Source: Nitrososphaerota archaeon
Lineage (GTDB): Archaea > Thermoproteota > Nitrososphaeria > Nitrososphaerales > Gagatemarchaeaceae
NCBI GenBank assembly: GCA_016200045.1
Contig: JACQFN010000021.1
Span: 1-64,000, forward strand
Length of the DNA: 64,000 nucleotides
Direction of reading: 5' to 3'
A model generated the notes under the pieces. That model did not search any database. It was not told the DNA's origin and worked only from the letters and a program-made list of their open reading frames with translations. Below, one piece after another: positions 37,268 to 40,968 of this stretch. The position numbers were made by a program, and so were the translations under genes. Position 1 is the stretch's first letter. The number at the start of each line of letters is the position of its first letter.

Positions 37268-39523
37268 TCAGGCTAGCGGCACTGCCGTGTGTCTCCTGTA
37301 GGCGGCCATCAGCCCTTCGGCGGTACACCGTTTATCGAACGGCTCGAGCACTGACGAGCAGGCTTCGGCGAGCAGTTTGACATATCGTTTCGAATCGTAA
37401 GGCGCCTCGCCATCGACGAAGTCCAGCGGGGTCGCCCTTCTGGAGTCGCGACCCTCGTAGTCTGTGATAACATACCGTATCCCCTCCCCGGCGTGGAGCT
37501 CCACCCCCTCTCTCACGAGCTGCTTGACTGCGGCATGCTGGATGGTCATCGTCGTGTATTCCCCGGGTCCTTTGGACAGGTTGGTCCTGAACGCCAGCTC
37601 GGCCGTCGGGATGCCGCGGTGCTCGAGCGACGTTGCATATCTGAGGAAGACTCCGACGCATTCCGGGACCCTTCTTTTCGCGCCGTCGACGGAATCCGCT
37701 TTCGCGAGTATCCGCAGAATCTCCATCTGGCACTTCGTGAACGCCAGAGGGGTGTCGTGCCGCCTGGCTTCTATCCCCCTGACCTTCAACTCGCCGTCGG
37801 CATAGGCCCCGAAATACCTGTTGAGGACCGGCATGTCGGGGTCGACCTTCGAGGGGAGGAAGGTCACCCACTTGTAGATCCCTTCGAAAGACATCGCAAA
37901 ACCAGTCTCCGATTCTATGTTCGACTTCAGTTCCAGATAGTCTTCTTTCTGTGCCCCTTCCTTCCTGACCCAGAGCGAATCGACGATGCCGTGTACGATC
38001 TCGAACCCCATGCGTTCGGCTATGCGGACTGAGTCGACCAGCACCTTCCTGTCCCACGCGCACACTGCTATGTGGGCGTCTATCCGGCCGAACTTCGCGT
38101 TGTTGAACCCGAGGTACCCGAACGTCGTGACCCCGAGCCACTTGAGGACGGCCTGCCGGGCGTTGTACCTGTCGTGGTCTTCCCCCTTCGAGTTATTTTT
38201 CAGTTCCTTGTAGCGAAGCCTCTTCTTGACAATGATCTCGATGGCCCGCGGAACTATCCCTTTCTTCTTCTCGCAGACGTTCCAGCCGAGCTCCGGGACC
38301 CTGTTCTTGGAGTCGGGGCAGCAGGGGCACCTAACCGTCTCGGCGGAGATGTTCTTCCTGTACATTATGTTCGGATAGAGGGCGGAAAAGTCGAGCTCGC
38401 CGACACCTTCGTGCACCCCCATTTTCGGTTCGAAGATGAATCCCCCCCTGTCTGCGACCATCAGCTCGTTCCTGTCCTTGAAGGACTCGACCAGGGTCGG
38501 CTTCCAGGGGACCAGCAGCCCTCCCTTCGACGCGTGGTAGAACTGCAGGCTGGACAGCGCCTTCCCTATGCTCGCCCTGCTCGACGTGTGCATCGGCATC
38601 CTGCATATCCTGCTGAGTTCGAAGAGCCCCTCGAACCCGTTCTCTGAATAGGAGAACGAGGTGTTCGAGTCGATGTGGATCCTGCCGTAGAGCTTCATCG
38701 ACGAAGGCTTGTAGTGGGTCCTGCCGTAGCTGAAGTAAGAAGTCCCGCCCTTCGAAGGAAGGTGAAGGAGGGCTCCGTCCCTGTCGAGGGTCAGCCTGTC
38801 CGCTATGCCGTTCGTTTCTGCCCGTTTCACCAGATAGGGGAAGAGGAACGAATCCCCGTCGCTGGTGATGATGAAGTCTGGGTCGGCGTCCCTGACGATC
38901 CTGACGAGTTCGAACAGCATGTCAGCCTCGTTTCCACGGTCGATCGTGATCTTCCCCGCGTCGCTCTCGAGCGTGATCCCTTTGACCCGGTCTGTGGGGC
39001 GCGGGACCTTCCCCTCTTTGTCGATTATCACGTCCAACTGCACCTTCCGCAGCGGCGGGACGGCATATTCGTAGTCCATTACGTCGTCGTGCAGGTCCCA
39101 CTGGAGCCTTTCTCCGACCTGCGTCACTTCGCAACGGGCCAGCGGGAAGACTTCGTGCTCGTACAGATAGCTCTGGCTCGGGGAGATGTCGACGTTGTAG
39201 AGCCTGAAGGTCCCGTAGGGGCCGAGGCGCTCGAGCCTCCCTGCGACCTGCTGAATCCTTTTCGCGTCCCTGACTTTCGCTTCCACCACTTCTGTCTTCG
39301 CAGAATCTGTGACCCTCTCCAGCCTGTGCACGACCCTGGTCCAGGCCAGCTCCTTCCCGATGGTCTGCAACGGCATCGTCAGGTCGGATGCATGGTCTGT
39401 CCCGATGAAGAAAGACGGAGACCAGTGGTCTACCAGACGCTCGGCTCGGCCGTCATCGAGCTTGAGCCAGACGACCATCTCGCCGGGCTTTCCCGGGTAG
39501 AGATCAAACAGCCAGCCCTTCAT
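37268..39523 (-). CDS. Divergent family-B DNA polymerase (PolB2-like?)
   Basis: Motif A ELDFSALYPNIMY, motif B RQAVLKWLGVTTFGYLGFNNAKFGRI, variant motif C HGIVDSLWV; no canonical Exo I DIE. Confidence 0.88.
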   Translation of the reverse strand: MKGWLFDLYPGKPGEMVVWLKLDDGRAERLVDHWSPSFFIGTDHASDLTMPLQTIGKELAWTRVVHRLERVTDSAKTEVVEAKVRDAKRIQQVAGRLERLGPYGTFRLYNVDISPSQSYLYEHEVFPLARCEVTQVGERLQWDLHDDVMDYEYAVPPLRKVQLDVIIDKEGKVPRPTDRVKGITLESDAGKITIDRGNEADMLFELVRIVRDADPDFIITSDGDSFLFPYLVKRAETNGIADRLTLDRDGALLHLPSKGGTSYFSYGRTHYKPSSMKLYGRIHIDSNTSFSYSENGFEGLFELSRICRMPMHTSSRASIGKALSSLQFYHASKGGLLVPWKPTLVESFKDRNELMVADRGGFIFEPKMGVHEGVGELDFSALYPNIMYRKNISAETVRCPCCPDSKNRVPELGWNVCEKKKGIVPRAIEIIVKKRLRYKELKNNSKGEDHDRYNARQAVLKWLGVTTFGYLGFNNAKFGRIDAHIAVCAWDRKVLVDSVRIAERMGFEIVHGIVDSLWVRKEGAQKEDYLELKSNIESETGFAMSFEGIYKWVTFLPSKVDPDMPVLNRYFGAYADGELKVRGIEARRHDTPLAFTKCQMEILRILAKADSVDGAKRRVPECVGVFLRYATSLEHRGIPTAELAFRTNLSKGPGEYTTMTIQHAAVKQLVREGVELHAGEGIRYVITDYEGRDSRRATPLDFVDGEAPYDSKRYVKLLAEACSSVLEPFDKRCTAEGLMAAYRRHTAVPLA

Positions 39524-39770
39524 CCTTCTTGTCCTTCAGCTTCTCGAACTCTCCTAGCAGCCAGACTATGGTCTTGTGCTGCACCAGCAGGAGGCTCATG
39601 AAGAGCGCTTCGCTGGGGAAAGGGGATTCCTTGGCCTGCATTGCCGGGAAATACTGGTAACAGAGCCTGAGCATCTCAGTGAAAAGCGTCCGGTCCTCTG
39701 CGCGCAGGGCGCCGGCGAAGCCGTCCCAGCTTTCCATCTCCTCGATGATTTCGACATCGGAAAGGGTCAC
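39504..39770 (-). CDS. 88-aa helical protein, paralog of adjacent ORF (GTG start)
   Basis: VTLSDVEIIEEMESWDGFAGALRAEDRTLFTEMLRLCYQYFPAMQ...; overlaps PolB start by 20 bp. Confidence 0.75.
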   Translation of the reverse strand: MTLSDVEIIEEMESWDGFAGALRAEDRTLFTEMLRLCYQYFPAMQAKESPFPSEALFMSLLLVQHKTIVWLLGEFEKLKDKKDEGLAV

Positions 39771-40036
39771 GGCGAGCCCTCCCCCTGCCTGATTTCCAAG
39801 GCAGATCGTATGGCCCGGGCAAGTAGCTTCTGATGGTGAAAGATTAGGGCCATTGCCATCCCTTCGAAGCGCGAAGGTCTGACGGCCGCCGAGGAGGCGG
39901 AGGTGTAGAGCCTGGCGGCGCCGGTCATCTGGTCGAATGCCGCCCTGTCTTTGCCTGGAAGTGCCTTTCTGAAAGCCTTCCATCCGGCAACCTCCTGCGC
40001 TTCGGCTATTCTGAAGGAGGGGACTGTCCTCCCCAT
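39767..40036 (-). CDS. 89-aa helical protein, paralog of adjacent ORF
   Basis: MGRTVPSFRIAEAQEVAGWKAFRKALPGKDRAAFDQMTGAARLYTSASS...; starts in TGATG overlap with upstream gene. Confidence 0.75.
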   Translation of the reverse strand: MGRTVPSFRIAEAQEVAGWKAFRKALPGKDRAAFDQMTGAARLYTSASSAAVRPSRFEGMAMALIFHHQKLLARAIRSALEIRQGEGSP

Positions 40037-40968
40037 CAGCGGGTCGCCCTCGCGAGGAGGTGTCTCAGCCTTAGGGTCACAGCGCCGGGCGGCCTTCGCG
40101 GGTGCCTGGAGAGTTCTGCGCGTATTCTCCCGCCTGACTCTGACAGGTCTAGGGTCGTGTCTGCCCAAGACAGGACGGCCTCGTCGTACTTGTTGGGCGC
40201 TCCCAGCGTGACGAGAACCATCGCGTCCTTCTTCGCCCGTCCAACCCCTTCCTCCATTGCGCTCAGGAGACGCCTGGCTTCCTGTTCGTCTAGCTCTGGT
40301 TCGTTGAACGTGCCGAGGAGGTCGGAGATCACGACCAGTTTGGTGGCGTAGTCCTCCAGAGCGCGGACGAGGTGCTTCGAAATCATGTCGGCGACCTGAT
40401 ACATCGTGAAGACACGGCACGTGGTCACCCGCCGCATCGCGGTCTTCGGTCTTAGCCCCCACTGTTTGGCGAACGAAGAGAAGAGGTACGGGTCAGACCG
40501 GTTCCCTCCGTCGATGAACAGAACCGCGGAGTCGAGCCCCCCCATTTCGAGGGAAAGCTGAGCCCTGAAGGTGATTCGCTCAGCCACGGCCGAGGAATAG
40601 GCACCGCTGATTACGACTGTGGTTCCCGGAGCCAGGGGCCTGAGCAGGGAATCGAGGTCGGGGAGTCCGAGAGAGAAGTGGGGGAAGGATGAAGCCAGAC
40701 GGAAGACAGGGTCCCTTCTTTCCGCTGGGACAGTGCTCGCCTGGTGTGCATCCCACCAATCGTCTGAGACGGGGGAAAGCCTGCATTCCGTGTTGTAGGC
40801 CAGCGCGTGGCCGCAGCCGACGCACCTGCCGCCGAGCGAGCCGACTGCCTCGTAGGCCGGTCGCAGGTCTCGTCTTATTCCGAGGATGCACCTGCATCTA
40901 GAACAGTAGTAGACGAACCTTTCTTTGCCGCCTTCGGCCTGCTCGTACAGATAGTGTAGCCTTGCCAT
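40036..40968 (-). CDS. RadA/RecA-fold protein with N-terminal zinc ribbon and degenerate Walker A
   Basis: CSRCRC...CVGCGH ribbon; LGLPDLDSLLRPLAPGTTVVISGAYSSAVAERITFRAQLSLEMG; Walker-B-like TKLVVISDLLG. Confidence 0.7.
   Translation of the reverse strand: MARLHYLYEQAEGGKERFVYYCSRCRCILGIRRDLRPAYEAVGSLGGRCVGCGHALAYNTECRLSPVSDDWWDAHQASTVPAERRDPVFRLASSFPHFSLGLPDLDSLLRPLAPGTTVVISGAYSSAVAERITFRAQLSLEMGGLDSAVLFIDGGNRSDPYLFSSFAKQWGLRPKTAMRRVTTCRVFTMYQVADMISKHLVRALEDYATKLVVISDLLGTFNEPELDEQEARRLLSAMEEGVGRAKKDAMVLVTLGAPNKYDEAVLSWADTTLDLSESGGRIRAELSRHPRRPPGAVTLRLRHLLARATR

What the first reader, a model, noticed from the sequence alone, without database searches (positions are those of the whole stretch)
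37268..40968. Coupled operon: RadA-like protein without Walker A, twin ~88-aa paralogs and a divergent PolB; possible archaeal mutasome
Seen directly: four minus-strand genes overlap head to tail (TGATG at 40036, GTGA at ~39770, 20-bp overlap at 39504-39523), implying translational coupling. Gene 1 has a zinc ribbon and a RecA/RadA-like core, but the P-loop position reads VISGAYSSAVAE with no GKT/S. Genes 2 and 3 are paralogs sharing the register W..F..AL...DR..F..M......Y.......P..E.....L..QK. Gene 4 is a family-B polymerase with intact motif A (DFSALYP), a variant motif C (GIVDSLWV instead of YxDTDS) and no DIE Exo I motif (aligned region LDVIIDKEG). Established context: bacterial ImuA-ImuB-DnaE2 mutasomes pair a RecA-like accessory protein with a divergent polymerase, and archaeal PolB2-type polymerases are divergent. 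Inference: the four proteins form one translesion or repair complex, with the twin small proteins as a heterodimeric adaptor.
Basis: partly seen in the sequence, partly recalled or inferred. Interest (0 to 1): 0.82.

Follow-up and report, generated by a model that had tools for sequence, protein, structure and literature searches.

The report
Archaeal PolB2 mutasome operon, twin PPB2
This is an archaeal four-gene operon for an already described error-prone DNA-damage-bypass polymerase complex, in the variant with two versions of its small subunit; the two versions split once, early in this archaeal class, and some relatives fuse them into one protein.

Summary
It is the PolB2 (Dpo2) operon (Makarova 2014, PMC4104785), modelled as the 'PolB2 mutasome' of PolB2 + inactive RadA (iRadA) + PPB2 trimer (Timinskas 2025, PMC11791011), including operons with duplicated PPB2 where only one copy has the MGRT arm. 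Sulfolobus Dpo2 is a damage-inducible translesion polymerase (PMC7390963). Here gene 2 is the armed PPB2a and gene 3 the armless PPB2b, so 'heterodimeric adaptor' is better read as a PPB2 trimer. The variant motif C (HGIVDS) is the clade's signature. Added here: the armed/armless split arose once and is kept across Nitrososphaeria (40+40 sequences, each one branch), while Bathyarchaeota have one armed copy; PPB2b lost just two conserved patches (the arm and residues 42-54) and kept the core; single-chain PPB2a-PPB2b fusions occur in Nitrososphaeraceae, favouring a mixed A/B oligomer. New member of a known kind.

The parts
40036..40968 (-). iRadA: RadA/Rad51 homolog without ATPase motifs, with an N-terminal zinc ribbon (310 aa)
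   Evidence: Pfam Rad51 E=4.7e-5; Foldseek RadA/RAD51 E~1e-15; Walker A replaced by GAYSS; zinc ribbon in most Nitrososphaeria iRadAs, not in Bathyarchaeota
39767..40036 (-). PPB2a: armed small subunit, starts MGRTVPSFR (89 aa)
   Evidence: clade A of the PPB2 tree, 40 rows, 100/98; all 120 closest relatives carry GRT at the N-terminus
39504..39770 (-). PPB2b: armless small-subunit paralog, starts (GTG) MTLSDVEI (88 aa)
   Evidence: clade B of the tree, 40 rows, 100/99; homologous to PPB2a at hhalign E=5e-17; lacks arm and 42-54 patch
37268..39523 (-). PolB2 (Dpo2-type family-B DNA polymerase, 751 aa); motif A DFSALYP, motif C HGIVDS, DRGG and PWKP elements
40034..40038 (-). TGATG junction iRadA/PPB2a
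39767..39770 (-). GTGA junction PPB2a/PPB2b
39504..39523 (-). 20-nt overlap PPB2b/PolB2

Best explanation
The operon encodes a PolB2 mutasome, a DNA-damage-tolerance polymerase. Shown here by sequence: the four components, their coupling and their conservation. Known from Sulfolobus: the Dpo2 polymerase is active, damage-inducible, error-prone and extends distorted primer ends past lesions. Predicted in the literature by AlphaFold: PolB2 docks on iRadA through a motif that imitates the RadA filament contact, and a PPB2 trimer inserts one N-terminal MGRT arm into the PolB2/iRadA cleft near the DNA. Inferred here: in this lineage the trimer is mixed; PPB2a supplies the single arm that the asymmetric complex can use, and the armless PPB2b fills the remaining trimer positions. 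Coupled translation of all four genes would help co-assembly.
For: Same three families in the same order as the published operon (PMC4104785, PMC11791011). Polymerase and RadA domain hits. PPB2a has the MGRT arm and PPB2b lacks it, exactly as published for duplicated operons. Motif C HGIVDS (HAIVDS in some) and DRGG in nearly all of 80 relatives. Of 17 loci of the same order with a HGIVDS-type PolB2 and wider flanks, 14 hold all four genes close together, one lacks a PPB2b match and two hold PolB2 alone (L031-L046, L050). Gene overlaps conserved. Armed and armless clades each form one branch. Residues shared by single-copy PPB2 and PPB2a but lost from PPB2b are confined to the arm (G2, T4, S7, R9, A11) and R42-P54, while core residues E15, W19, L26, F34, A47, M62 are kept. 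Single-chain fusions of an armed and a second PPB2 half in many Nitrososphaeraceae, one directly upstream of PolB2 (L097). The genome has a separate PolB with GDTDS and a separate RadA with an intein-split GSGK P-loop, so this PolB2 is unlikely to be the replicase and this iRadA is not the recombinase.
Against: No multimer prediction or biochemistry could be run. No experiment on a Nitrososphaeria PolB2 was found. About 16 Nitrososphaeraceae contigs hold PolB2 with no iRadA or PPB2 beside it (some contigs are short), so the genes are not always linked. The 2025 paper obtained good models for homo- and heterotrimers alike, so the A:B stoichiometry is open, and a 1:1 fusion does not match a 1:2 trimer in an obvious way. 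No damage-response regulator (orc1/cdc6) was identified next to this operon.
Confidence: 0.9

Rival explanations
1. PPB2b forms its own homotrimer with a second role (for example assembly factor, decoy or regulator of the mutasome) and is not part of the same trimer as PPB2a.
For: Published models allow homotrimers of either copy. G005 carries an additional lone PPB2b-type gene away from the operon.
Against: Single-chain PPB2a-PPB2b fusions, pairing of a and b upstream of PolB2, 4-nt overlap of the two genes.
Confidence: 0.25
2. PolB2 is a catalytically dead structural subunit, and the complex only regulates replication or stalled forks (the 2008-2014 reading).
For: First Asp of motif C replaced; exonuclease motifs missing.
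Against: The motif A Asp and the second Asp and Ser of motif C are invariant; inteins sit at motifs A and B in relatives, sites known for inteins in active polymerases (own knowledge); the Sulfolobus orthologue is active and mutagenic (PMC7390963).
Confidence: 0.06
3. An ImuA-ImuB-DnaE2-type mutasome.
For: RecA-family partner plus divergent polymerase.
Against: The polymerase is family B; there is no ImuB-like or DnaE-like gene in the operon; PPB2 has no counterpart there.
Confidence: 0.01

Closest known systems
Archaeal/bacterial PolB2 mutasome (PolB2 + iRadA + PPB2; Makarova 2014 PMC4104785, Timinskas 2025 PMC11791011)
   Same: Same three families, order iRadA-PPB2-PolB2, no P-loop in iRadA, MGRT arm on one PPB2, motif C lacking the first Asp, duplicated PPB2 already reported.
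   Different: Two PPB2 copies kept class-wide in Nitrososphaeria; N-terminal zinc ribbon on iRadA (the word zinc does not occur in the main text of the 2025 paper); no orc1/cdc6 or lexA neighbour seen.
Sulfolobus Dpo2 operon
   Same: [quoted passage not shown] damage-inducible translesion synthesis shown there.
   Different: Modelled with one kind of PPB2; induction untested for the window's operon.
E. coli Pol V mutasome (UmuC, UmuD'2, RecA)
   Same: Polymerase, small-subunit oligomer with one arm near the active site, and a RecA-family partner.
   Different: Y-family polymerase, unrelated small subunit, active RecA.
ImuA-ImuB-DnaE2
   Same: RecA-like accessory with a divergent polymerase.
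   Different: Different polymerase family and no PPB2.

Membership tests
PolB2 mutasome operon | PolB of the PolB2 clade with substituted first Asp of motif C and degenerate exonuclease | tested here: met
   HGIVDS, Exo I absent; HGIVDS/HAIVDS across the relatives
PolB2 mutasome operon | Adjacent RadA homolog without ATPase motifs (iRadA) | tested here: met
   Rad51 fold, GAYSS in place of GSGKT
PolB2 mutasome operon | Adjacent ~90-aa helical PPB2 with N-terminal MGRT | tested here: met
   PPB2a starts MGRTVPSFR; PPB2b model all-helical, mean pLDDT 74
PolB2 mutasome operon | In duplicated operons only one copy has MGRT | tested here: met
   PPB2b starts MTLSD; same pattern in relatives
PolB2 mutasome operon | D(K/R) motif and preceding iRadA-binding segment in PolB2 | tested here: met
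   DRGG at 358-361 and PWKP at 339-342 conserved; that the segment binds iRadA rests on the published model
PolB2 mutasome operon | C-terminal clamp-binding motif in iRadA or PolB2 (present in only some members) | tested here: inconclusive
   No canonical QxxLxxFF by eye; close relatives share a C-terminal [ST]FxLxQLL in iRadA
PolB2 mutasome operon | DNA-damage-inducible expression | not testable with these tools
   needs transcript data
PolB2 mutasome operon | Physical heteropentamer | not testable with these tools
   no multimer prediction available
ImuA-ImuB-DnaE2 mutasome | ImuB Y-family protein and DnaE2 C-family polymerase | tested here: not met
   polymerase is family B; no such genes in the operon

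The most novel reading that the evidence does not exclude
In Nitrososphaeria the PPB2 subunit has become an obligate heterotrimer with a dedicated armed subunit and dedicated armless fillers, so that the asymmetry predicted for the single-gene complex is fixed genetically; some Nitrososphaeraceae hard-wire this by fusing the two.
Probability: 0.5. Interest if true: 0.45.

Novelty: new member of a known kind. Interest (0 to 1): 0.3.

Why it matters
It places a described but experimentally unproven translesion complex across Nitrososphaeria, including relatives of ammonia oxidizers, and shows that its small subunit split once into armed and armless forms. That gives a direct test of the predicted one-arm mechanism: swap or delete arms and measure binding and lesion bypass.

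Tried and rejected
A functional link to the Y-family polymerase gene in the window (28660-29757): it lies near PolB2 in only two of the relatives inspected (L031, L041), not in the others. A link to the OB-fold gene 34950-36350: opposite strand and only partly conserved next to the operon. A Pfam model for PPB2: the precomputed label PF26485 could not be looked up and the local Pfam scan gave nothing. A PDB fold match for PPB2b: none below E=0.001. Chance as an explanation of the operon: excluded by conservation across Nitrososphaeria and Bathyarchaeota. A novel system: excluded by PMC4104785 and PMC11791011.

Full report
Observation. The gene overlaps (TGATG, GTGA, 20 nt) are exact and recur in close relatives: -1, -4 and about -11 to -20 nt. 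Gene 1 is a RadA/Rad51-fold protein (Pfam Rad51 E=4.7e-5; Foldseek RadA/RAD51 E~1e-15 on an AlphaFold model of mean pLDDT 78 with the core mostly above 80) in which GAYSS stands where RadA has GSGKT. Gene 4 is a family-B polymerase with DFSALYP and HGIVDS. Genes 2 and 3 are paralogs (hhalign probability 98.8, E=5e-17).

What it is. Makarova and co-workers (PMC4104785) described the association of PolB2, an inactivated RadA and the ~90-aa arCOG07300 protein. Timinskas and co-workers (PMC11791011) renamed the latter PPB2, modelled PolB2 + iRadA + three PPB2 and called it the PolB2 mutasome. They also described duplicated PPB2 operons in which only one copy has the N-terminal MGRT motif. The window fits this exactly: PPB2a (gene 2) begins MGRTVPSFR, PPB2b (gene 3) begins MTLSDVEI. 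In Sulfolobus islandicus, Dpo2 is damage-inducible and solely responsible for targeted mutagenesis (PMC7390963). By homology the function is translesion synthesis. The word mutasome in the finding is apt, but the idea is not new.

Conservation. Of 61 genomes searched, 55 have a family-B match, and near-full-length PolB2 at 64-75% identity is common in the genus. A scan of named genomes kept 80 loci, from Nitrososphaerota (Thaumarchaeota) and Bathyarchaeota. HGIVDS or HAIVDS is in nearly all of them, so the variant motif C is a clade signature. iRadA without a P-loop lies upstream in 59. Bathyarchaeota have one PPB2 with an MG[RK]T arm. Nitrososphaeria, including Nitrosopumilus, Nitrosotalea, Nitrososphaera and Gagatemarchaeum, have an armed and an armless copy in the order iRadA-a-b-PolB2. 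With 10-20 kb around PolB2 in 17 same-order loci of the HGIVDS type, 14 hold all four genes, one lacks a PPB2b match and two hold PolB2 alone. About 16 Nitrososphaeraceae contigs of the named scan hold PolB2 with neither partner; several of those contigs are short, but six have 6 kb upstream.

The twin small proteins. A maximum-likelihood tree of 101 PPB2 sequences puts 40 armed copies on one branch (100/98) and 40 armless copies on another (100/99), with the Bathyarchaeota single copies between them (only 81 columns and a midpoint root, so the internal order is uncertain). This is one ancient split, kept since. Residues conserved in both the single-copy form and PPB2a but lost in PPB2b fall in two patches only: the arm (G2, T4, S7, R9, A11) and R42, S46, A51, R53, P54; core residues E15, W19, L26, F34, A47, M62 are kept in all. 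Reading (inference): PPB2b kept the oligomer core and lost the polymerase-facing parts. In Nitrososphaeraceae, open frames of about 180-220 aa join an armed half to a second PPB2 half; in L196, L197 and L205 the second half scores higher with the armless model, in the more diverged ones it cannot be typed. No PolB2 lies within the 1.5 kb flanks of those inspected. L097 has such a fusion directly upstream of PolB2, though a frameshift in its repeat-rich linker cannot be excluded. The main text of the 2025 paper mentions iRadA-PPB2 and PPB2-PolB2 fusions, not this one; its supplements could not be read. The fusions argue that a and b work in one assembly; the stoichiometry is inference.

Why not the replicase or the recombinase. 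The same genome has another family-B polymerase with GDTDS and another RadA whose P-loop GSGK is interrupted by an intein.

Limits. No multimer modelling, no expression data, no supplements. The trimer and the arm insertion are published predictions, not structures. The mixed A/B trimer is my inference at about 0.5.

Verdict. Observation confirmed; interpretation partly supported and already published; new member of a known kind with a modest evolutionary addition.

Noticed in passing
L211 3670-7545(+), L212 1769-5641(+), L213 1709-5752(+), L214 394-3840(-): PolB2 genes of relatives carry inteins: at motif B (VT|C...HN|CFGYLG) in three and at motif A (DYS|C...THN|SLYP) in one, within intact mutasome operons.
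   Followed up: partly
L047 7572-10945(+), L048 8814-11970(-), L049 7949-11024(+): Other genomes of the order (one of the same genus) have a PolB with canonical DxD (YADCDS/YGDVDS) preceded by a RadA-like protein without a P-loop whose C-terminal part resembles PPB2 (VGRITPSFRQ...): apparently an iRadA-PPB2 fusion with a DxD-type polymerase.
   Followed up: partly
L140 1201-1749(-), L138 1462-2106(+), L182-L197, L200, L203, L205: Single-chain PPB2-PPB2 fusions with an armed first half, several per genome in some, away from PolB2 in the Nitrososphaeraceae-like genome G043.
   Followed up: partly
L073, L074, L077, L080, L088, L098: PolB2 genes with 6 kb of upstream sequence but no recognisable iRadA or PPB2: orphan PolB2 in Nitrososphaeria genomes.
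   Followed up: partly
window 28660-29757 (-): Y-family DNA polymerase (IMS domains), about 7.5 kb from the PolB2 operon; the proximity is kept in only some relatives.
   Followed up: yes
N-terminal part of iRadA, window about 40800-40910 (-); L051-L104: N-terminal zinc ribbon on iRadA in most Nitrososphaeria but not in Bathyarchaeota, broadly coinciding with the PPB2 duplication.
   Followed up: partly
L148 1471-1779 (+): A lone extra PPB2b-type gene in G005 behind a long membrane-protein gene, far from the operon.
   Followed up: no
L216 (G000:C24:18000-22500): The genome's other RadA carries an intein inside its Walker A motif (GSGK|C...HN|SQ).
   Followed up: partly
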